From: Termitomyces sp. T153
Taxonomy: Eukaryota; Basidiomycota; Agaricomycetes; Agaricales; Lyophyllaceae
DNA length: 64,000 nucleotides
Direction: 5' to 3'
Assembly: GCA_018296165.2 (NCBI GenBank)
Contig: JACKQL020000025.1
Span: 744,001-808,000 of the forward strand
In this document: in pieces, positions 18,799 through 64,000 of the stretch
Numbering within the stretch: position 1 is the stretch's first letter
How the letters are laid out: each line of letters opens with the position of its first letter
Program-made: the position numbers and the translations under genes
The notes under the pieces: generated by a model
Seen by the model: the letters and a program-made list of their open reading frames with translations, nothing else
What the model was told of the DNA's origin: nothing
Databases searched by the model: none

Positions 18799-19248
18799 GT
18801 TAGTTTTACTATCCCAATCAGTTTTCTCTGATTTTCTCATCAATATACATAGATATGGACTCTCTGTCGCCGCGCAAGCGTGGTGCTGGTATGTCTGACC
18901 TATAATCAGTCGTAGATTGTACCGTAACAAGCATTTTTCTTCAGCAATCATTACTCTCAAGTCGGCCATTGCTGTCGTCCACCTACGAGGAATTATACTG
19001 CTTCTACCTCGGAGACAACACTTTAATTCTGGCTTCTGCGCGATATAGACTGTTGCCAAAAATTCCTGAAGGAGATCTCATGACCACGATGTCTCCAGAG
19101 ATCCACTCGAATAGAACCACTCGAATGCCAGCTGTCATCTTGACATAGTATGTATCATATGATATGTTACTGGCCCAAAGTCTAAGTATATATATATACA
19201 TAATATATATATAGGAGGTATGGCCAAGTCCCCAACATCATCAACACA
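18799..19248. other. Upstream region of P450 copy 1
   Basis: It includes an AT-rich run of TATATA repeats at about 19185-19213, just before the ATG at 19249. Part of this flank (GTATG.ATCATATGA.ATGT type) is also recognisable upstream of P450 copy 2 near 38070, showing that the duplication included promoter sequence. Confidence 0.5.
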
Positions 19249-21392
19249 ATGTTGTCGATACCTGCTTCGTTATTCTTTCTCAGTGTTGCTTTCATCCTGT
19301 TCTTAAAGAAAAGCCATCAGAAACGTGCTCGTCTACCTCCTGGGCCTCCCGGTCATCCCTTTATCGGTCATGTGCTAAAGATTCCTGCCGAAAGCCAAGA
19401 TTTAGCCTTGTACAAGCTGGGAAAAACATACGGTACGCCTCCTTCAGAAACACATTGAAGCCTTACGCACCATCCCACGTTGTCATCAGGAGATGTTATG
19501 TATCTCGAAATGTTTGGAAGACCAATAGTGGTGTTGAACAGTGTCGAGGCCGCCATAGACCTTCTGGACAAGAGAAGTGCGAATTATAGCGATAGGCCTC
19601 ACTTTCCTATATTTGAACTGTGCGTTTTCTGCTTTAGCAGAAAAAATGAGTGGCTAATGTCTTGACAGCATGGGCTGGAGGGAAACCTTGACCTTTACAG
19701 GTAGTGGGAAACTTTTCAAAAAATATCGAAGATTGTGTCAAGAACACCTCAAGTCAACAAAAATCATAGTCTATCAACCGGTCCAGAGACAAGCGACTCG
19801 TATTCTTCTTCAAAATTTGCTTTCAGATGATAGCCTAAGGAATGATTGGATACGGCGGTAAGAATGATTATCAATCAGAAATATTGGTAACAAAGGTCTA
19901 CTAACCGCCAGGTTTTCTACTTCGATCATCATGCGGGTCGCATATGGCCACCAAATTACTTCTGATGATGATCCTTATCTTGACATCACGGAAAACACTA
20001 GTATTGCCCTAGGCAATGCCGGTGCCCCTGGAACCACGCCAGTCGATTTCTTCCCATTTCGTAAGTAAAAACGAGTCAGCTTCTACTGCTGACTCTATAC
20101 AATGACTGACTATTCGGATGTTTTCAGTTCAGAATTTTCCATCGTGGTTTCCTGGCGCCTATTACGCCGGATTTGCACGCAGCCAGAAAGGCGCGATCAG
20201 GAAGTTGCATGATTACCCGTTCGACAACGTGAAAGCGGAGCTGGTGCGTCCTCGGTCCAAGTTTGCTTCTTATATTTTGCTTCATAAATATTTTTAGGCG
20301 GCAGGGACGGCCAAGCCTGCGTTTGCATCTCATGAGTTACAATCCCTCAGCTTGGATGAAGCTGACAACTCGAGTAATATTCTGGATATAAAGGGCGTAG
20401 CAGGTGTGATGTACTGTGCTGGAGCAGAGACGGTAAGGAGAGCGTTCAGTGAGTATGTTATTGGTATGGATTCATGTTTGTGATCAGACATGGGCTACAT
20501 TGTCTGTTTTCTTTCTGGCAATGGTCCTTCATCCGGAATGCCAGAAACGGGCCCAGCAAGAGATCGACTCTGTCGTAGGACCAGGGCGTCTTCCTGAGTT
20601 TTCAGACCGCGAGTCCCTACCATATGTTGACTGTATACTCCAGGAGACTCTGAGGTTCGTCTCTGAACATGCGTACGTTGTAGCAATCCAATCATTTTGC
20701 CTATTGCAGATGGAACCCAGTAGTGCCATCAGGTCTGTATCCTAATTTATTGTAATAGGAAGTTCTTCGTGAGACATCGATAACCTTGTTCTCAGGTATA
20801 CCACACCGTTCTTTGGAGGATGACATCTATCGTGGAATGTTCATACCCAAAGGTTCTCTCGTCATAGGGAACACCAGGTCACTATTTATATCTCCATCTT
20901 GGGAATTGAGGGTTCAATCATCATTTAGAGGGATGGCACTCGACGAGAAAGTTTATACGGATGCGCAAGCCTTCAACCCATCTCGTTATCTCCCTCTACC
21001 TGAGGGAAATCATGAGCCCTATCCACATCCTTTTGGTTTTGGACGTAGGTATGAACGTTCCTTGTGCCGTCATCTTTCTTTGTATATTGGGTTGAGGAAA
21101 CCTCAGGATCTGTCCTGGGCGTCATCTTGCTGATGCGAGTGTGTGGATTGCGATGGCATCTATTCTGGCAACTTTCGACATACTGAAACCTATCGGATCG
21201 GATGGAAAGGAGATAACGCCCGAAGTTAAGTTTAGTACTGGTATCACAAGGTACCTTTCATTTTCTTGTTACAATCTATTATCACTCAAACAATCCCACA
21301 GTCAACCTTCCACCTTCTATTGTCATATACGGCCCCGAAATGATCAAGCAAAGGATCTGATTATGCATGCTGATACATCAGACAACTATTAA
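19249..21392 (+). CDS. Cytochrome P450 monooxygenase, copy 1
   Basis: Twelve exons: 19249-19432, 19490-19619, 19669-19857, 19912-20060, 20128-20243, 20298-20432, 20488-20654, 20710-20732 (23 nt), 20796-20877, 20929-21048, 21107-21250, 21302-21392; 509 aa, the normal length for the family. N-terminal membrane anchor (LFFLSVAFILFL), PPGPPGHPFIGH hinge, C-helix WRETLTF, I-helix CAGAETT, K-helix ETLR, FNPSRYLPLPEG (PERF region) and heme loop FGFGRRICPGRHLAD with the Cys ligand, created across the 21048/21107 splice. It resembles the sterigmatocystin-oxidoreductase-like basidiomycete P450s. An ER-bound mono-oxygenase using a P450 reductase; substrate unknown. Versus copy 2 it lacks one Gly before the heme loop (YPHPFGFG against YPHGPFGFG). 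Confidence 0.94.
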
Positions 21393-33773: not shown

Positions 33774-34478
33774 CTGATCAGACCTGACACCTGTCCAACT
33801 TGCACAGCCCCAACCAGCCCTGCCATCAGACCTGCAATCCCTGGAGTAGACCCAGTAGTCAGCATTTAAGTCATAGAGTAATATATGCTACAATAGTCTT
33901 GATATTACTTACAATTTTGTCCTGTTATGTCTTGTTTTCTGGTTTCATCTCTGTTTCTGTCTCATTATATCTGGTCTCATATCTCATCTCAATTCTATTT
34001 CATTCTTGTCTCTATCTCATCTCAACTCCATCTTGTCCTGCCTGCCTCAGTTTCCTCTCATGTGTGCCTGAGTTCCTTTCAACTTCAACTCCATTCCAAT
34101 TTCCATACATATTTCTGTTCATATCTTTATGACTTGTACATTCTTATCTAACTCCAGACCTTGTCCTATGCTCAGCCCCAGAACCCATCAACACCATCTG
34201 ATCACCCATCAAACCCTGGTCCCACTCCCATTGCTTATGTGACCCTCAATTGCCCCACACTCCCAGTGTCTGCCCCCCAACTTGAGCCTGACAAGCCCCC
34301 CAAGCCAACCCTTATTTGCACTTTTTCTTAGACTTCCCTGGACTTCTCTGGACTTGCTTGGACTGCTCCCCCAATCTATCCTTGCAACTATCTGACATCT
34401 GGACTTCCCCAGAGCACAAGGTTATAAGTGCAGGATGTTGTGTCTGCCTAGTAAGGATTTGCCCAGTTAAGCTGAGCC
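33774..34478 (+). repeat. Decayed 1-kb-type LTR (self-primed family), 5' truncated
   Basis: Matches the second half of the young LTR (59733-60717): CCCAGTAGTC, AAGTCATAGAGTA, AGTCTTGATATTA at 33895-33907, and GGTTATAAGTGCAGG ... TAGTAAGGATTTGCCC near the end. The TATA position has decayed to CATTTAAG but is still 32 bp before AGTCTTG. CpG sites have turned into TG/CA. Boundaries are approximate. Confidence 0.75.
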
Positions 34479-35475
34479 TGGAACAACCCATCCCTGGACC
34501 TCTGGACCTCCCTCCCACATGCCCCAAATGCCCAGACTGCCCACCAGCACCCCCTTGTCTCACCCCAACTCTTGTTCACCCATTGCACCCACCTCAGCTA
34601 ACTCCAACACTTCCCCAGCAAACTTTGACAGCCCCCCAGCAAACCCTGCCACTCCCTCATTCCCTTCTGAGCCCCTGGATACCTCCAACTCTTCCCAGAA
34701 ACTCCAGCACACATTGCAGACCCACACTAATGTGTCACCATGGCCCACTTAATCAGAAACTGACACCTGCCAGACCTGCATGGCCCCAACAATCCCCACC
34801 ATCAGACCTGCAACCCCCAGAGGATTTCCAGTAGTTAGTATTCAAGTCATAGGGTGATATCTGCTACAGTAGTCTTGATATTACCTACTTACATCTGTGT
34901 CTGTTAACATTTTGTTTCTGGTTTCATCTCTCACCTCTAGTTCTGTTTTGTTTTTGTCTTGAGCCTCATTCTAAATTCCATTCTGTTCTTGTCTCAATCA
35001 TGTCTCAACTGTCTTATCTTGTTTGCCTCAGCTCCTTTCATGTTGTCTGACTTCCTTTCAATTCCAACTCTGTTCCAATCTCTGTGCATATCTCTGTTCC
35101 TACCTTTATGCCTTGTACATTCCAATCTAACTCCAAACTTTGCCCTACACTTAGCCCTGGAACCTATCAGCACCATCTGATCCCCCATCAAACTCTGATC
35201 CCACTCCCATTGCTTGCATGACCTTTGATTGCCCCACACTCCTAGTATCTGCCTCCAGACCTGTGTCTGAACCTTCCAAGCCCAACCCTTATTTGTACCT
35301 TGTCTTAGACTTCCCCAGACTGGTGCCTGAACCTTCCCCAAGCCTGACCTTTATTTGTACCTTGTTTTAGACTTCTGTGGACTACTCCAGACTTGCTTGG
35401 ACCACTCCCCTTAGCTTGCCCTCACAAGTATCTGATGTCCAAACCTCCCTGAAATGCTAGGTTATAAGTGCAGGC
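34479..35475 (+). repeat. Second decayed 1-kb-type LTR, 3' truncated at Helitron junction
   Basis: Starts with a block similar to the solo LTR start (CCCTGGACCTC). It carries AGTCTTGATATTA at 34871-34883, 32 bp after the TATA-equivalent, and breaks off inside GGTTATAAGTGCAGG at 35475 where Helitron-like sequence begins. Lies head-to-tail with the previous copy. Confidence 0.7.
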
Positions 35476-37500: not shown

Positions 37501-38253
37501 CCCTAGAATGTGCGCAATCATAGAATCCTTGACTCCAAGGACACCACCAACATCATCTCGGCATGCTTTTGTACTCTTAGCATGGATTCACAATCAGACA
37601 GTAAGTTTCACGCACCTTCTGTGACCCAGGATTCAGATGACAACTTTGGGAATCCATCACTATCAAGCTCCACAATTTCTCCATCAGGACGATGCTTCAG
37701 TGAAGACAGTGCACATGGAGGTGGGAGCCATTTTGTCTAGCACCGGCAAGGAAGAGCTGCCAGATATTGGATTCTGTGGGAGGCATTCAAGCTTCATCAA
37801 AGATTCTTGAACCTTTGCTGCCAAAAATTTGATTGACATTTATTATGAGTCAAAGGGTTGAGTAAAGGTTATTAACCTTTGGGATTGATATGAACCTTGA
37901 GCTTAGAAACGACCTAAGCCTTGAAGCTTATTAACCCAAAACCTTTATAGCCAACGCTGCAGTACCATGCATTAAAATGTCAGGGTCGGCTGACAGTACA
38001 GTGTTCTTTTCAGTATGCCTGTCTCCACTCAGAGAACCCAGTAATTTCTGTCGTCTAGATATGGTATGCATCATATGACATATCGAGTTCCGAGTTTACC
38101 TCATGGCATATGACAGTATAGTGTTCTTTTCGGTATGCCTGTCTCCGCTCAGAAACCATCTCGAATGCTAGTTGTTATCTAGATTTGACATGTATGCGTC
38201 ACTACCCTAAGCCTATTTAATAGGTATGCCAAGCCCCCCAACTCCTTAGCGCA
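37501..38253. other. Right edge of TE island and P450 copy 2 promoter
   Basis: CpG dinucleotides return here. A plus-strand open frame to 37740 (SDSKFHAPSVTQDSDDNFGN) has no recognised family. The block TGACAGTACAGTGTTCTTTT with the text around it is repeated twice (about 37990 and 38109), a short direct duplication upstream of the P450. Confidence 0.5.
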
Positions 38254-40400
38254 ATGCTGTTAATACCTGCCTCGTCACTATTCCTCAGTGCTGCTTTCAT
38301 CCTGTTCTTGATAAATAAAAGCCGTCAGAAACGCGCCCATCTACCCCCTGGACCTCCCGGTCATCCCTTTATCGGTCATGTGCTAAAGATTCCTACCGAA
38401 AACCAAGATATGGCCTTGTACAAGCTGGGAAAAACGTACGGTACGCCTCCTTCAGAAACACATTGAAGCTTTATGCACCATCCTACATTGTAATCAGGAG
38501 ATGTTATGTATCTCGAAATCTTTGGACGACCAATAGTCGTGCTGAACAGTGTCGAGGCCGCCATAGACCTTCTGGACAAGAGAAGTGCGAATTATAGCGA
38601 TAGGCCTCACTTTCCTATATTCGAACTGTGCGTCTCCTGCTTTAGGAGAAAAAATGAGCGGCTAATGTCATGACAGCATGGGCTGGAGGGAAACCTTGAC
38701 CTTTACAGGTTATGGGAAACCTTTCCAAAAATATCGAAGATTGTGTCAAGAACACCTCAAGTCAACAAAAATCATAGTCTATCAACCGGTCCAGAGACAA
38801 GCGACTCGTATTCTTCTTCAAAATTTGCTTTCAGATGATAGCCTAAGGAATGATTGGATACGGCGGTAAGAATGTTTATCAATCAGAAATATTGGTAACA
38901 AAGGTCTACTAACCGCCAGGTTTTCTACTTCGATCATCATGCGGGTCGCATATGGCCACCAAATTACTTCTGATGATGATCCTTATCTTGACATCACGGA
39001 AAACACTAGTTTTGCCCTAAGCAATGCCGGTGCCCCTGGAAACACACCAGTCGATTTCTTCCCATTTCGTAAGTATAAACGAGTCAGCTCATACTGCTAA
39101 CTCCATACAATGACTGACTACTCGGATGTTTTCAGTTCAGAATTTCCCATCGTGGTTTCCTGGCGCCTATTACGCCGGATTTGCACGCAGCCAGAAAGGC
39201 GCGATCAGGAAGTTGCATGATTACCCGTTCGACAACGTGAAAGCGGAGCTGGTGCGTCCTCGGTCCAAGTTTGCTTCTTATTTTCCACTTCATAGAAATT
39301 TTTAGGCAGCAGGGACGGCCAAGCCTTCGTTTGTATCTCATGAGTTACAATCCCTTAGCTGGGATGAAGCTGACAACTCGAGTAATATTCTGGATATAAA
39401 GGGCGTAGCAGGTGTGATGTACTGTGCTGGAGCAGAGACGGTAAGGAGAGCGTTCAGTGAGTATGTTATTGGTATGGCTTAATGTCTGTGATCAGACATG
39501 GATCACATTGTCTGTTTTCTTTCTGGCAATGGTCCTTCATCCGGAATGCCAGAAACGGGCCCAGCAAGAGATTGACTCTGTCGTAGGACCAGGGCGCCTT
39601 CCTGACTTTTCAGACCGCGAGTACCTGTCCTATATTGAGTGTATACTTCAGGAGACTCTGAGGTTCGTCTCTGAACGTACATGTGTTGTAGCAATCCAAT
39701 CATTTTCCCTCTTATAGATGGAACCCGGGAGTGCCATTAGGTCCGTCTTCTATTTCATTACAACAAGAAGTTTCCAGTGAGACATCGATAAACTTGTTAG
39801 GTGTACCCCATCGCTCTTTGGAAGATGACATCTATCGCGGAATGTTCATACCCAAGGGTTCTCTTGTCATAGGGAACACCAGGTCACTATTTATATCTCC
39901 ATCTTGGGAATTGAGGGTTCAATCATCATTTAGAGGGATGGCACTCGACGAGAAAGTTTACACGGATGCGCAAGACTTCAACCCATCTCGTTATCTCCCT
40001 CTGCCTGAGGGAAATCATGAGCCGTATCCACATGGACCTTTCGGTTTTGGACGTAGGTATGAACGTTCCTTATGCCGTCATCTTTCTTTGTATATTGGGC
40101 TGAGGAAACCTCAGGATCTGTCCTGGGCGTCATCTTGCTGACGCGAGTGTGTGGATTGCGATGGCATCTATTCTGGCAACTTTCGACATACTGAAACCTA
40201 TCGGATCGGATGGAAAGGAGATAACGCCCGAAGTTAAGTTCAGTACTGGTATCACAAGGTACCTTTCATTCACTTGTTGCGACCTATTATCACTCAAACA
40301 ATTCCATAGTCAACCTTCCACCTTCTATTGTCGTATACGGCCCCGAAATAATCAGGCAAAACATATAATTATGCACGCCGATACCTCGGACAATTATTGA
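38254..40400 (+). CDS. Cytochrome P450 monooxygenase, copy 2
   Basis: Same twelve-exon structure as copy 1: 38254-38440, 38498-38627, 38677-38865, 38920-39068, 39136-39251, 39306-39440, 39496-39662, 39718-39740, 39801-39882, 39934-40056, 40115-40258, 40310-40400; 511 aa. All phases are intact. Motifs: PPGPPGHPFIGH, CAGAETT, ETLR, FNPSRYLPLPEG, HGPFGFGRRICPGRHLAD. Differences from copy 1 include WNPGVPLG for WNPVVPSG in the 23-nt exon, TWITLSV for TWATLSV and one extra residue near each end. Introns are nearly identical too, so the duplication is recent. Likely the same ER-membrane oxidation role. Confidence 0.94.
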
Positions 40401-56125: not shown

Positions 56126-58460
56126 TGATGTGCTCCTATGCCACCTAGTGCCATGCAGGAAACCAAAAAGGAGGACCTAACACTAGTTACTAGATAGAGT
56201 AGCTGGCAGTAGGAAGTTAATGATGAGGGTGAGTTAGTAACTGTCCCACAAAACAAGAGCTAATGGATGTAGTGTGAAAGAGAAGGGTAATAGTTGCTAT
56301 TGCTAGCCTAAGTCACTAAATGGTAATGAGAGGTTGCTAGGCAAAGGAAAGACAAAAGAATGAAGGCAAAAGAGTTGCTAAGGAAGGGGGGGGACTGTCA
56401 GGTTCTGCTGATTATGGGGGCTCAGCTACACTGGGCAAATCTTTACTAGGCAAATGTGATTCCCTGCACTGATAACTGGGCACTTGGAGAGGTTCTAAAT
56501 GCAGAGGACTTGGGAAGATAAGCAATGGGGAGTGATCTGAACAAGTCTAGGATGGTTCAGAGGAGTCTAGGACAAGTTGTGGGGAAAGGAGCAGACTGAT
56601 AGGATGTCAGGTACAAGTCCAGAGGTGAATATTGTAGGTGCAGAGTAAGTAGAGGCTATGTGAGTGATGGGAGTGGAGGCAGCACAAGTGATGGGAGTGG
56701 AGGCAGAGCTTGATGGGGGATCAACAGAGGTTGACAGCTTTTGGAGCTGAGCAAATAGCAAGGTCTGGAGTTGGTTTGGAAAGTGTTGAGTTTGTAATTG
56801 TGAGCACAGAGTTTGTAAAGGCATTGAAGTTGAAAGGACTTGAGCATGGTAATAGAAACAGAGTTGAAAGAGACAAGACAAAGTTGAATGGAGTGAAATG
56901 GAGTTGAGATGAGATTGAGACAAGAACAAAAATAGATTCAAGTGGAGATACAAAATGATAACAAGAACAATAATGGAGATAGAGACAAGACAAGACTGGG
57001 AGATGGAGGGAAGGCTGGGAGACTGAGAGTAAAGGAAAACATAACATGGAACACAAAACAAGAAATAGAAACAATCAGAAGCACATCAGGTAAGGCAATA
57101 TCAAGACTAGAGTACAAGGAGCTACTCTGCAACTTATATACTGACTACTGGAGAGCTCTGGAGGACAACAGGTGTGGTGGCAGGGCTTGGCAGAGCCATG
57201 CAGGGTCAATGGGTGTTGGTTGTGATCAGAGGGTGGGCTGGTGATATTCTGATGGGATCAGCTAAGAACATGAGTCATTCTGAGGTTGTTGTAGTGCTCT
57301 AGAGTAGGTTGGGTAAATCAGGGTGATGAGCTGGTGACATACAATGGGGTCAGGAATGGTGGGGGAGGGTTCTTGGGGCTCAGGATAGTCAGGGGAAGTG
57401 TTGACAGCTGCGGAGAAGGCATCAGAGTGGGCCAGGGGGCTGCTGGGGTTTGCTAGAGAAGTGTTGAAGTTACTTGGAGTGGGTGCAGAGGGTGTACAAG
57501 GGTTGGGGAGTTTGTTGGGGCACTGGGGGGGGGAACTCTGGGAAAGCAAGCAGGCTGGGAACAATGTTGGAGGTCCAGGGAGCAGTTCATGACAGGGACT
57601 AAACAGTGAAGGTGGAGTTGGGAAGAAAAGGGGAAAGTGAAGACAAAGAGACTGGAGGGAACAAATGCAACTTAGTTGCTAGCTATAGTTGCTAGCATCA
57701 CTAAGTCAGAATAATGCAAAGGGAACCTGCAGTTGGTACCACACAAAGTCAAAGTCAAGGTCAGCAAGACTGTCACTAAGTCATTGTCAATGTTGAGTGA
57801 AAGAGCAAAAAGAAATTTTAAGCTGGTAAGCTTAGAGCTAGAGAGGGGGAAACAGTACTCTATTCATTTTTTTTTAGTCTCTATGTACAGGCAGTATTTA
57901 TACTGTTCATAGGTATAGTATATGAAAGGAAATAGTAGTTGCCACCAGCAATGGCATCTGCCAAGGTGTTTATGATACATACAAGGTGTCAGTCTGGTAA
58001 CCAAGTAAAAAGTAAGTGAAGTCAATATAATGTGTAAAAATTACAAATTGCAAGAAAAGAGCATGTCCAATGTCAATCCCTGAAGTGTAGACACTATTCA
58101 AGTATGTTTGTAAGCTCAACAAGAAAAATGATAAGTAAGAAATCACATGACTGTCAATATGTCCATTTTTAGAGAGAAGGTGGTGTTGTCACCAGGAAAG
58201 TCACTAGCAATTGTTGCTAAGAAAGGTCTCAGCTTTGTTGTTTTAGACCCAAAGTCCAGACTCCACATAATATGGCTCATGATCAATAAGTCTCATGGTT
58301 GCTAAAATTCCATGCAAAGGCTACATGGTTCCAGACCTTGGGGTGAGGCCTCACATGCTGAATGTCATGACTTGTGTTGTGACTTGTGCCATGTCAATAT
58401 AATTAGCTGCTGTCTAATCAGAAAAATGCCAAAAATGGTGCTCAGCAACAAGTAGGTCTT
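56126..58460. mobile_element. 2.3-kb insertion of unknown type splitting the gag/pol spacer
   Basis: The spacer reads ...EYMELEMYNN up to about 56125 and resumes with EYYTHGSDSERLFAL at about 58460, matching the uninterrupted 30350-30694 region of the other element (EYIELETYDNEYYIHDSDSD). The inserted DNA carries repeated GTTGCTA/TTGCTAAG motifs, no coding sequence I can identify, and the antisense solo LTR (56396-57594). Possibly a non-autonomous DNA element; ends are approximate. Confidence 0.55.
56396..57594 (-). repeat. Solo LTR, antisense, with 5-bp target duplication GGGAC
   Basis: 1199 bp, TGTCA...TGACA, a reverse-orientation member of the same family as the young LTRs. On the minus strand it starts TGTCATGAACTGCTCCC and has TATATAA 32 bp before AGTCTTGATATT. 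GGGAC flanks both sides (56391-56395 and 57595-57599), proving insertion as an element and later LTR-LTR recombination. No internal element sequence remains. Confidence 0.9.
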
Positions 58461-59732: not shown

Positions 59733-60717
59733 TGTCATGACGCTCCCTAGATCCCTAGACACTGCCCCCAACCCCTCCCGATTTCCCGCCTAACTCCCTG
59801 GAACCCCGCCCACACTTTCGACGCCCACACTGGGCAACTCCGACGCTTCTCTGGCAAACCCCGACAGCAACTCCCTACCCGTAGCCATCAACACCCCTTG
59901 AGACCTTCCCCCACCGTTCCTGGCCACGTCATACGTCCCCGACCCCCTACCCTAGCTCACCCGACCCGTCCCGGAGTGCCACGACGTCCCCGGAGGGGCC
60001 GCGCCCCCAACTGATCCCATCAGAATACTGCCGCAGCCTGACCTTGGATTGTACCCGACACCCGTCGACTCAGCACAGCTCCGTCGACCCCCGCCATCAT
60101 ATCCGCCGCCCTCGGAGGCACCCAGTAGTCGGTATATAAGTCATAGAATAACTCCTCGAACCTTAGTCTTGATATTACATTTTACCGGTTTCCTATGTTT
60201 CGTCTCGTGTATCATCTCTATTTCTGTTTCTAGGCCTCGAATCTATCTTTTCTCAGTCTCGTCTCATCTCGACTGTACATATTTCCTTTGTTCCTCTGAA
60301 AGTTCCCTTGCTCCCTACGTCAGTACGAACTCCGCGCACGCGCCACAACCTGAACATTCTTAACGACAACCCTGGACCTCGCTACCCGCTCGGCCCCGGA
60401 ACCCACCAAGCCCCGGTAATCCCCTGTCCAACCCGACCCCGCCCCCCAACAGCCGAGAAGCCTCTGCCTACCCCGCAATCTACTTGTGCGCCCACTAACT
60501 AGCTCTGACACCCGCCCTGGGTCAACGACCAGTAACTCCGGTCTTAGACCCCTCTGAATTACTCAGGACTTATTCGGGCCGCTATCCCTAGGGACCCCTC
60601 GCAAGCTTTCCCCACCTCCGCTCCAACTCCGGCGCCTGGTTATAAGCGCAGGACATCGCGTCCGCCTAGTAAGGACTCGCCAGTGTACTGAGCCCCCATC
60701 ATCAGCGGAACCTGACA
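59733..60717 (+). repeat. LTR 1 of the young self-primed gypsy element
   Basis: 985 bp, begins TGTCATGACGCTCCC and ends GGAACCTGACA; the short inverted ends are TGTCA/TGACA. GC- and CpG-rich, in sharp contrast to the sequence on its left. Its TATA box TATATAA lies at 60133-60139. Nearly identical to 62351-63336. Confidence 0.92.
60133..60177 (+). promoter_or_regulatory. LTR promoter: TATA box and predicted transcript start
   Basis: TATATAA (60133-60139) is followed after exactly 32 bp, counted from its first base, by AGTCTTGATATTA (60165-60177). A start at 60165 would place these 13 bases at the RNA 5' end. The same spacing is seen in LTR 2 (62775-62787), the solo LTR and both decayed LTRs. 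Confidence 0.7.
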
Positions 60718-60730
60718 TAATATCAAGACT
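60718..60730 (+). promoter_or_regulatory. Self-priming primer-binding site (PBS), copy 1
   Basis: TAATATCAAGACT directly abuts the LTR end and is the perfect 13-base reverse complement of AGTCTTGATATTA at 60165-60177. There is no TGG-type tRNA site. This is the arrangement of Tf1/Tf2-like self-primed elements. Confidence 0.75.
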
Positions 60731-60749
60731 CCCCCTTACCCCGTTCTCG

Positions 60750-62350
60750 ATGTCTGCGTTTAACCCCACGTACAACCCAGTCGGTTACCCAACCAACGCC
60801 TACGGCCAGCCCATATTGGAAAATTCCTACGCCCCATTCTACCCGGGCCCCTTCGCGGACCAATACGTACCCCGTCACTGGACCCCTGACCCCAACCAGG
60901 TGTTCTATGCCCCCTCCATCAGCCAGGGAATACCCCCGGGCTGGCGCCGCCCTCCCGCATTCCACGCCGATGGCAACAACCCCCGTATCAACCCCGGAGG
61001 ATACTCCGCAGCACCCCCCAACCCCGCCTACCTTCCCCCCGCCCATTATTATGCGTATCCAATCCCCGCTGCAGCCCCAGCCCCTCCGGAAGCTACGGAT
61101 AACTATTCCCCACCCCGCCCACCATTCGCCGTTCAAACCCCTCCTTCCCCCAGGCAGCAGAGGATCGAAGCCTACGCCCAGCAACGCGACGAAGTCCTCC
61201 GCTTCCTTCGCCTGTCCCCTGCGGAATTCGCAAGGCGTACCCGCACCTTCCTTACCAGCCTAGGCTACCCCGACACCTCCGCAACCCCGGAGGTCTGGGC
61301 GGACCGACTCCTCGACTTCCACGAACGCTACCTGCAAGGGAACCTCCCGGAGAATACGCAAGGCACCCTGGGCCTCGACGAGAACTTACGGAACGAGCTC
61401 CGCGCCTTGGTCGAAGAAATCCACACTAGCCCGAACCCCCGCCCCTTCGAAGATCCCCTGGACCCCGCCCGCTCCTTCCACGTGCAACGCGAGGAACCCG
61501 TCGGGACACGAAACGAAGCCCCATCTTCCGTTCCCCGCCAGCAGGAAGAACTCAACGCGGCCTCCAGCATCTTGAGGAATCTCAACCCCGCGGGGGGGCT
61601 GTTCGACCAACCCGCCGCCCACACCCTGGCCCTCTCCGCCCGGCCCCGGGCCAGCTCGGTGCCCAGCGCCTTCCGAACCTGGGATCAACCCGCCATCCCC
61701 GAAATCCGCTCCCAACGACCGTCCCTACGCGTCGACGACGACAACCGGACCCTCTCCTATATCGACGAGCCGGGCAACCCCGTCGACGAACACCCCCCGC
61801 GCAACGGGCCCCAACGAGACCGACCCCCCCATTTCGACCTCCGCGCCCCTCGTAGCAACGCCCCTCCGCCCCGTCCCAACGCCCCAGTCCCCCCGCGACA
61901 GCCCCTGGGCCCCGGGGCGCCCCGACCCCCTCTGTCCGCCAACCCCTTTCGTCCCCCGCCCGCCCCGATGCCTAACCCCCCCAACGACATCAACTATTTC
62001 GGACCCCCGAATCCCGGAGGACCCTCTCCCCCTCGATGGGCCCCAGGACCCGCCCCGGGTAGTGTAGGTCAAAACCCCGGTGGGGGACCACCCAATGGCG
62101 GACCCCCAGGAGGATGGGGCCCGGCGATGGACAACTTCCCCCCCCAGCGCGGAAACGGAAACAACTACTACTACTACTACAACGCCGGACCCCCACCCCG
62201 AACTCAAAATTTGCAGGACGACACCCGCGACGCACTGGCCCGGGAAGGAAAGCTCGACATCCAGAAGCCCGAACCCTTCACCGGCCGCGACCCCCGGAAG
62301 TGGCGAATCTTCCTGACCCAGTGCTTAACTATGTTTCAAGCTAAGCCCAT
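60750..62350 (+). CDS. gag polyprotein (N-terminal part), interrupted by LTR 2
   Basis: The open frame from ATG 60750 runs about 533 codons and then reads into LTR 2 (last codons TTRSLDP, stop at 62378). Pro/Asn/Tyr-rich N-terminus (MSAFNPTYNPVGYPTNAYGQ), a helical capsid-like stretch (QRDEVLRFLRLSPAEFARRT, WADRLLDFHERYLQGN), a proline/glycine linker, and the start of the Ty3-type capsid domain KLDIQKPEPFTGRDPRKWRI, FLTQCLTMFQAKP. No stops or frameshifts, so young. It should continue into the rest of gag and pol; instead LTR 2 begins at 62351. It forms the particle shell. Confidence 0.88.
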
Positions 62351-63336
62351 TGTCACGACCCGCTCCCTAGATCCCTAGACACGGCCCCCAACCCCTCCCG
62401 ATAACTCCCCGGAACCCCGCCCACACTTTCGACGCCACACTGGGCAACTCCGACGCTTCTCCGGCAAACCCCGACGGCAACTCCCTATCCGTAGCCATCA
62501 ACACCCCCTTGAAACCTTCCCCCACCGTTCCTGGACACGTCATACGTCCCCGACCCCCTACCCTAGTTCACCCGACCCATCCCGGAGTGCCACGACGCCC
62601 CGGAGCGGCCGCGCCCCCAACTGATCCCATCAGAATACCGCCGCGGCCCGAACTTGGGTTGTACCCGACACCCGTCGACTCAGCACAGCCCCGTCGACCC
62701 CCGCCATCACATCCGCCGCCCTTGGAGGCACCCAGTAGTTGGTATATAAGTCATAGAATGACTCCTCAAACCCTAGTCTTGATATTACATTTTACCGGTT
62801 TCCTATGTTTCGTCTCTCGTCTCGTCTGTATTTCTGCTCCTAGGTTTCGAATCTATCTTTTCTCAGTCTCGTCTCGTCTCCGTCTCGTCTCGACTGTACA
62901 TATTTCCTTTGTTCCCCTGAAGTTCCCTTGCTCCCTACATCAGTACGAACTCCGCGCACGCGCCACGACCTGAACATTCCTAACGACAACCCCGGGCCTC
63001 ACTACCGCTCACCCCGGAACCCATCAAGCCCCGGTAATCCCCTATCCAACCGACCCCGCCCCCCCAACAGCCGAGAAGCCTCCGCCTACCCCGCAATCCC
63101 CTCGTGCGTCCGCTAACGAGCTCCGACACCCACCCTGGGTCAACGACCAGTACCTCCGGTCTTAGACCCCTCTGAATCACTCCGGACCTACTCGGGCCGC
63201 TATCCCTAGGGGCCCCTCGCAAGCCTTCCCCACCTCCGCTCCAACCCCGGGCGCCTGGTTATAAACGCAGGACATCGCGTCCGCCTAGTAAGGACTCGCC
63301 AGTGTACTGAGCCACCGTCGTCAGCGGAACCTGACA
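62351..63336 (+). repeat. LTR 2 of the young self-primed gypsy family
   Basis: 986 bp, TGTCACGACCCGCTCCC ... GGAACCTGACA. The scattered differences from LTR 1 (for example CGGCCCCC for CTGCCCCC, a missing TTTCCCGCCTA block) show that the two are not the pair of one fresh insertion. It interrupts gag 1 after AAGCCCAT; the 5-mer just left is CCCAT. Confidence 0.9.
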
Positions 63337-63349
63337 TAATATCAAGACT
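63337..63349 (+). promoter_or_regulatory. Self-priming primer-binding site (PBS), copy 2
   Basis: TAATATCAAGACT abuts LTR 2 and is perfectly complementary to AGTCTTGATATTA at 62775-62787 in that LTR. Confidence 0.75.
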
Positions 63350-63368
63350 ACCCCTTACCCCGTTCTTG

Positions 63369-64000
63369 ATGTCTGCGTTCAACCCCGCGTACAACCCAGT
63401 CGGTTACCCAACCGACGCCTACGGCCGGCCCATATTGGAAAATTCCTACGCCCCATTCTACCCGGGCCCCTTCACGGACCAATACGTGCCCCGTCACTGG
63501 ACCCCTGACCCCAACCAGGTGTTCTACGCCCCCTCCATCAGCCAGGGAATACCCCCGGGCTGGCGCCGCCCTCCCACATTCCACGCCGATGGCAACAACC
63601 CCCGTATCAACCCCGGAGGATACTCCGCAGCACCCCCCAACCCCGCCTACCTTCCCCCCGCCCATTACTATGCGTATCCAATCCCCGCTGCAGCCCCAGC
63701 CCCTCCGGAAGCTACGGATAACTATTCCCCACCCCGCCCACCATTCGCCGTTCAAACCCCTCCTTCCCCCAGGCAGCAGAGGATCGAAGCCTACGCCCAG
63801 CAACGCGACGAAGTTCTCCGCTTCCTCCGCCTGTCCCCTGCGGAATTCGCAAGGCGTACCCGCACCTTCCTTACCAGCCTAGGCTACCCCGACACCTCCG
63901 CAACCCCGGAGGTCTGGGCGGACCGACTCCTCGACTTCCACGAACGCTACCTGCAAGGGAACCTCCCGGAGAATACGCAAGGCACCCTGGGCCTCGACGA
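63369..64000 (+). CDS. gag polyprotein of the second young element, cut by window end
   Basis: ATG at 63369; the frame is open to the window edge and nearly identical to 60750-61380 (MSAFNPAYNPVGYPTDAYGR against MSAFNPTYNPVGYPTNAYGQ). It lies downstream of LTR 2 and PBS 2, as in an intact element, so LTR 2 is its 5' LTR. Confidence 0.88.
   Translation, partial: MSAFNPAYNPVGYPTDAYGRPILENSYAPFYPGPFTDQYVPRHWTPDPNQVFYAPSISQGIPPGWRRPPTFHADGNNPRINPGGYSAAPPNPAYLPPAHYYAYPIPAAAPAPPEATDNYSPPRPPFAVQTPPSPRQQRIEAYAQQRDEVLRFLRLSPAEFARRTRTFLTSLGYPDTSATPEVWADRLLDFHERYLQGNLPENTQGTLGLD

What the first reader, a model, noticed from the sequence alone, without database searches (positions are those of the whole stretch)
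60133..60730. Self-primed (Tf1-like) reverse transcription signature in a mushroom gypsy family
Seen: TAATATCAAGACT right after the LTR is the perfect complement of AGTCTTGATATTA inside the LTR, 32 bp after the first base of TATATAA. The same is true for LTR 2 (62775-62787 with 63337-63349). Known: in S. pombe Tf1 the first bases of the RNA fold back on the PBS and, after cleavage, prime cDNA, replacing a host tRNA. Inferred: this family uses that mechanism. Two independent copies with perfect pairing and no tRNA-type site make chance unlikely. This is the strongest candidate for an uncharacterised system in the window.
Basis: partly seen in the sequence, partly recalled or inferred. Interest (0 to 1): 0.75.

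Follow-up and report, generated by a model that had tools for sequence, protein, structure and literature searches.

The report
Self-primed mushroom LTR retrotransposon (Tf1/sushi-type)
A jumping gene of a mushroom (most likely the termite-farmed Termitomyces) carries the sequence signature of starting its own DNA copying with the first dozen letters of its RNA instead of a host tRNA, a mechanism already known from its relatives in fission yeast.

Summary
In both window LTRs the 13 nt right after the LTR (TAATATCAAGACT) exactly complement AGTCTTGATATTA, which starts 32 bp after the first base of TATATAA. None of 20,000 control boundaries reached 13 nt. Print calls self-priming a common feature of that Tf1/sushi group, so this is a new member of a known kind. 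New detail: TATA box plus motif recurs at 2,719 places in this genome (reversed control 0), 2,579 with the same 25-nt spacer. Constraint covers nt 1-12. Nt 13 is A at 1,006 of 2,719 places, while the PBS base opposite is T at 735 of 739. Against: the window copies are not independent, the paired bases show no covariation, and the Tf1 'pretzel' side duplexes were not supported. No RNA data exist here, so start site and cleavage are inferred.

The parts
59735..60717 (+). LTR 1 (983 bp, TGTCA...TGACA)
   Evidence: LTR end supported by target-site duplications of other copies
60133..60139 (+). TATATAA, putative TATA box; first base 32 bp before the self-primer
60165..60176 (+). putative RNA 5' end / self-primer AGTCTTGATATT (12 nt constrained; nt 13 at 60177 pairs in this copy but varies in the genome)
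60718..60730 (+). primer-binding site TAATATCAAGACT, directly after the LTR, perfect complement of 60165-60177
60750..62350 (+). gag reading frame of element 1, cut by LTR 2 (the open frame runs on to 62378 inside LTR 2)
   Evidence: no Pfam hit on this truncated frame, but the longer relative on C97 carries Retrotrans_gag
62351..63336 (+). LTR 2 (LTR of a second copy lying in the gag of the first, followed by gag again)
62743..62749 (+). TATATAA of LTR 2
62775..62787 (+). self-primer sequence of copy 2
63337..63349 (+). primer-binding site of copy 2
63369..64000 (+). start of gag of copy 2 (runs off the window; the contig ends 864 bases further on)

Best explanation
The window holds the 5' parts of two copies of a Ty3/gypsy chromovirus family of the Tf1/sushi assemblage that starts reverse transcription by self-priming. 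Pol II most likely starts the RNA at A60165, 32 bp after the start of the TATA box (inferred). The first 12 nt (AGUCUUGAUAUU) fold back over a leader of about 550 nt and pair with the primer-binding site directly after the LTR (sequence shown, pairing predicted). The element's RNase H would cut after about nt 11-12, and the freed RNA end would prime minus-strand DNA in place of a tRNA (inferred from Tf1).
For: Exact 13-nt complement at the LTR boundary, 0 of 20,000 controls. Of the 30 LTR loci, 29 carry TATATAA, 25 nt and AGTCTTGATATT exactly, and all 12 that are followed by element interior (one of the 12 is window copy 1) have both halves. 2,719 such places genome-wide with spacers of 20-32 nt, control 0; 2,579 of them with exactly 25 nt. 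In 6 diverged LTR segments found with a query that stops before the motif, the 12-nt primer is the most conserved 12-nt window, tied with the window one base earlier (98.6% against a mean of 65.7%); nt 13 falls to 33%. 750 exact LTR-end+PBS sites, control 0. No TGG in 35 nt after either LTR; best of 40 usable tRNA 3' ends matches 1 nt. Pol of the C97 copy has SH3_Tf2-1 and a chromodomain. RT on the fungal/vertebrate side, 100/100. Primer:PBS pairs have probability 0.76-1.00 (copy 1) and 0.81-0.99 (copy 2) in the full leader.
Against: No transcript data, so start site and cleavage are unproven. The paired 12 nt hardly vary, so there is no covariation inside the family. The two extra duplexes of the Tf1 'pretzel' did not beat shuffled sequence (fractions 0.15, 0.17, 0.72, 0.77), and the leader as a whole folds no better than shuffles (z 0.59, 16 of 20 at least as good). 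5 of 33 exact PBS sites on C1 had no listed exact primer motif 250-1000 nt upstream. The tRNA set is incomplete. Tf1 and sushi-ichi were not in the tree, and Ty3 is a long branch whose place the program calls unsure.
Confidence: 0.86

Rival explanations
1. The element is primed by a host tRNA or tRNA fragment, and the LTR complement is coincidental.
For: The tRNA set is partial: 60 places listed, 71 unique ARAGORN sequences, 40 with a usable acceptor stem. Half-tRNA primers occur in some LTR elements (passages of PMC6317226).
Against: No TGG within 35 nt; best tRNA 3'-end match 1 nt and best internal shared stretch 7 nt; coincidence at the exact boundary 0 of 20,000; the LTR motif is constrained over the paired length.
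Confidence: 0.03
2. The complementarity is a real RNA stem closing the leader (for packaging, translation or dimerisation), and an unidentified RNA primes at or near the site.
For: Pairing is predicted to form, and static sequence cannot tell a leader stem from a primer duplex.
Against: One strand sits exactly at the LTR edge where minus-strand synthesis must start, the other at a TATA-spaced position, and the RT falls with a group that has published self-priming (PMC10085805).
Confidence: 0.07
3. The motif is conserved as a core-promoter initiator, and its inverted copy at the LTR edge is a relic no longer used for priming.
For: TATA spacing is fixed; LTRs not followed by element interior carry the motif as well; many copies are decayed.
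Against: A promoter element alone does not explain an exact inverted copy at the LTR boundary, which recurs 750 times.
Confidence: 0.04

Closest known systems
Tf1/Tf2 of Schizosaccharomyces pombe (self-priming, 11 nt; passage read in PMC7175516)
   Same: [quoted passage not shown] SH3 domain of the Tf2-1 type
   Different: Here the constraint runs to nt 12 rather than 11; start site and cleavage not shown; pretzel side duplexes not supported; gag and pol in different frames. Sequences of Tf1/Tf2 were not compared
Tj1 of S. japonicus (passages read in PMC4600332)
   Same: PBS complementary to the mRNA 5' end
   Different: Tj1 was shown to transpose; nothing comparable here
Tcn1 of Cryptococcus neoformans (passage read in PMC7175516)
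   Same: A basidiomycete gypsy element for which self-priming was proposed
   Different: A clade of its own in PMC2864245 (passages); its sequence was not compared here
marY1 of Tricholoma matsutake and its clade (passages read in PMC10627285, PMC2864245)
   Same: Mushroom chromovirus, so a plausible nearest named clade (inference)
Ty3 of Saccharomyces cerevisiae
   Same: gypsy-order RT, 38% identical
   Different: Falls on the other side of the 100/100 split, though as a long branch; tRNA-primed (recalled)

Membership tests
Tf1/sushi group of chromoviruses | gypsy-order pol with integrase chromodomain | tested here: met
   RVT_1, RT_RNaseH, Integrase_H2C2, rve, SH3_Tf2-1, Chromo (profile positions 1-35 of 53) on the C97 copy's pol; the window itself holds no pol of this family
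Tf1/sushi group of chromoviruses | RT groups with fungal and vertebrate chromoviruses, apart from plant chromoviruses and Ty3 | tested here: met
   100/100 split in a tree of 29 rows. Tf1 and sushi-ichi were not available; of the five vertebrate rows two were rescanned, the fish one with a chromodomain, the axolotl one without
Tf1/sushi group of chromoviruses | PBS complementary to the LTR at the RNA 5' end, no tRNA PBS | tested here: met
   sequence only, the RNA 5' end itself is inferred
Tf1-type self-priming | RNA starts at the complement | not testable with these tools
   Only indirect: fixed TATA spacing at 2,579 of 2,719 places
Tf1-type self-priming | RNase H cut after nt 11, freeing the primer | not testable with these tools
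   Indirect: constraint stops after nt 12
Tf1-type self-priming | three-duplex 'pretzel' leader | tested here: inconclusive
   Central duplex predicted; flanking duplexes no better than shuffles; consensus fold of 16 motif-selected leaders gives a weak second helix
tRNA-primed Ty3/gypsy | PBS begins TGG and matches a tRNA 3' end | tested here: not met
   tRNA set incomplete

The most novel reading that the evidence does not exclude
This genome is a natural experiment in self-priming. Thousands of LTRs show a primer constrained to 12 nt, with nt 13 uncoupled from the PBS base that faces it. A second, different gypsy family (184-bp LTR, LTR pairs about 5.3 kb apart, L104/L107-L109) has its own, unlike 11-nt LTR/PBS complement 2 nt after the LTR. 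Self-priming would then be widespread across gypsy lineages in this mushroom, not confined to one family.
Probability: 0.3. Interest if true: 0.45.

Novelty: new member of a known kind. Interest (0 to 1): 0.3.

Why it matters
It adds a high-copy mushroom family to the likely self-primed Tf1/sushi elements; the experiments met in the passages read here concern fission yeasts. With 2,719 motif places in one genome it lets primer length and start-site spacing be measured from sequence alone, and it gives a sharp prediction (RNA start at 60165, primer of 11-12 nt) that ordinary 5'-end RNA data could settle.

Tried and rejected
Covariation inside the family: the 12 paired nt hardly vary, so the test has no power; the 16 leaders were chosen by the motif, so their pairing there is by selection.

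Pretzel side duplexes: not better than shuffles.

First tRNA comparison used wrong 3' ends (ARAGORN's trailing genomic bases kept, CCA added after them) and is discarded; one search replaces it.

Relatives in viral contigs: none by protein or by DNA motif.

Search of held sequence for other self-primed LTRs: 21 hits of this family type (overlapping loci counted), 10 others against 7 in letter-reversed controls, so the others are background.

Second gypsy family (L104): 11-nt complement 2 nt after its LTR; 49 of 50,000 control boundaries reached 11 or more with offsets 0-5. Its PBS begins TGG, so a tRNA is not excluded. It was the only different family among the three extra loci read. Its LTR end is taken as L104:2818 from the 3' LTR matches, which end at query base 182 or 183; the script set it one base later, which changes the offset only.

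Pairing of C1 sites: the primer lists are capped, reverse-strand places above about 2.38 Mb being thin, so one of the 28 pairs (PBS 2406975) could only have been classed as A.

Structure of the antisense-ORF protein: mean pLDDT 52, not searched further.

Full report
What is there. LTR 1 spans 59735-60717 and LTR 2 62351-63336; both begin TGTCA and end TGACA and are 91% identical. Directly after each stands TAATATCAAGACT, the exact complement of AGTCTTGATATTA at 60165-60177 and 62775-62787, in each case 32 bp after the first base of TATATAA. LTR 2 lies inside the gag frame of the first copy, and gag starts again after it. The window is G000:C25:744001-808000 and the contig ends 864 bases later, so a nested insertion and an assembly join cannot be told apart here.

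Chance. The longest complement starting exactly at the LTR boundary is 13 nt. Of 20,000 random boundaries in the window with the same 983-bp upstream stretch, none reached 13 and one reached 12. The two window copies are paralogues and count once.

The element. The own genome (72.4 Mb, 307 contigs) gave 40 scored LTR matches of 1,246 candidates, a lower bound, many in pairs about 9.7-9.8 kb apart, so elements are about 10.8 kb. The copy on C97 has a gag frame (836 codons, Retrotrans_gag) and, in another frame, a pol frame (1,332 codons) with protease, RT, RNase H, integrase, SH3_Tf2-1 and a chromodomain match reaching the frame's end. Five-base target-site duplications flank 4 of 5 complete elements checked, and GGGGGTGA precedes the 3' LTR in 5 of 5. 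This fixes the LTR ends and shows that the PBS follows with no gap. The five LTR pairs are 94.9-98.3% identical over 960 columns.

Host. The closest named proteins are from Termitomyces: RT region 89% identical over the whole query to one Termitomyces sp. T112 protein and 86.6% to another. All 120 listed homologues (of 133 found) of the element's antisense frame are Termitomyces. That the host is Termitomyces is an inference.

Group. A tree of 29 RT-RNase H rows splits 19 rows (the window's family, fungal and metagenomic rows, one amoeba row, five vertebrate rows) from 10 (Ty3, six plant and three Closterium rows) at 100/100. Ty3 is a long branch, flagged as unsure. Published classifications, read in passages, call the fungi/vertebrate assemblage Tf1/sushi and name self-priming as its common feature (PMC10085805, PMC6317226). 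Tf1 and sushi-ichi were not available as sequences here.

No tRNA site. No TGG occurs in 35 nt after either LTR. From 60 tRNA places listed ARAGORN gave 71 unique sequences, of which 40 had a usable acceptor stem; the best 3'-end match to the PBS is 1 nt and the best internal shared stretch 7 nt. The set is incomplete.

Genome-wide constraint. TATATAAN{20,32}AGTCTTGATATT occurs 2,719 times, with 0 for the pattern read backwards; 2,579 of these have exactly 25 nt between. CTGACATAATATCAAGAC occurs 750 times, control 0. Of the 30 loci, 29 hold the exact TATA-25-motif (L007 does not), and 12 of the 12 LTRs followed by element interior carry both halves; one of these is window copy 1. Using a U3 query that stops before the motif, 37 distinct segments reached its end. 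In the 6 diverged ones (68-76% identity) 5 keep all 12 bases and 1 keeps 11; the primer 12-mer is the most conserved of 149 windows, tied with the window one base earlier, at 98.6% against a mean of 65.7%, and nt 13 drops to 33%.

Primer length. Nt 13 is A at 1,006 of 2,719 places. The PBS base facing it is T at 735 of 739 sites of CTGACANNATATCAAGACT. On contig C1, 28 of 33 exact PBS sites have a listed motif 250-1000 nt upstream; nt 13 is A in 9 and not A in 19, with the same PBS; 5 have none listed. If the primer were 13 nt and copied into the PBS, base 1 should follow nt 13; it does not. So the working pairing is most likely at most 12 nt (in held LTRs the other letter at nt 13 is G, which could still wobble with T). 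Tf1 uses 11, with the cut between nt 11 and 12 (passage in PMC7175516).

Structure. In the full leader the primer:PBS pairs have probability 0.76-1.00 in copy 1 and 0.81-0.99 in copy 2 and are in the minimum-energy fold of both. The two further duplexes of the Tf1 model were not supported, the whole leader folds no better than shuffles, and a consensus fold of 16 motif-selected leaders gave only a weak second helix. This part is inconclusive.

A second family. One of three further loci read is a different gypsy element with a 184-bp LTR (LTR pairs about 5.3 kb apart at three places); its pol start is 41% identical to the first family's over 91 residues. The DNA 2 nt after its LTR, TGGACTAAGAT, is the complement of ATCTTAGTCCA inside the LTR in L107, L108 and L109; 49 of 50,000 controls reach 11 nt. 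It is suggestive, but TGG leaves a tRNA possible and the three copies are 97-100% alike in this stretch.

Verdict. The sequence observation is right, and self-priming of the Tf1 type is the best explanation (0.86), with RNA start and cleavage inferred. It is not a new system: self-priming is the published common feature of this group and was proposed for a basidiomycete element before. Searches of the held paper library for self-priming with basidiomycetes, self-primed reverse transcription, Termitomyces with LTR retrotransposon and Termitomyces with transposable element listed no title or abstract on this family; subscription journals are mostly absent from that library.

Papers: passages only were read of PMC4600332, PMC2864245, PMC6317226, PMC10085805, PMC7175516 and PMC10627285. 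The original Levin, Lin and Butler papers were seen only as references there; other papers only in search listings.

Noticed in passing
L036:7974-9218 (minus strand), between pol and 3' LTR of the C97 copy: A 414-codon antisense open frame without Pfam match. 133 homologues at E<=1e-5, all 120 listed from Termitomyces. Several T112 locus tags of pol and of this protein are neighbours. No indel columns against 5 other copies and a third-position excess of substitutions. Model of low confidence with one long helix.
   Followed up: partly
window 56396-57261 (minus), 33782-34478 and 34752-35474 (plus): Decayed relatives of the same LTR. Their primer motifs (57096-57108, 33895-33907, 34871-34883) have 1, 0 and 0 changes in 13 bases, although the matching parts of the first two are about 70% identical to LTR 1.
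   Followed up: partly
L036 antisense-ORF region against L032, L034, L038, L040, L042: 89-94% of substitutions between copies are transitions (83 of 93 to 95 of 101), as repeat-directed mutation or deaminated methyl-cytosine would give.
   Followed up: no
L104:2635-2818 and L107-L109: A short-LTR gypsy family with its own 11-nt LTR/PBS complement.
   Followed up: partly
window 60001-64000: GC content jumps to 62% against 40-48% in the other 4-kb blocks of the window, where these less decayed copies lie.
   Followed up: no
window 19208-21390 and 38214-40398: A 2.2-kb direct repeat, 92.6% identical, 19 kb apart; possible LTR pair or dispersed repeat.
   Followed up: no
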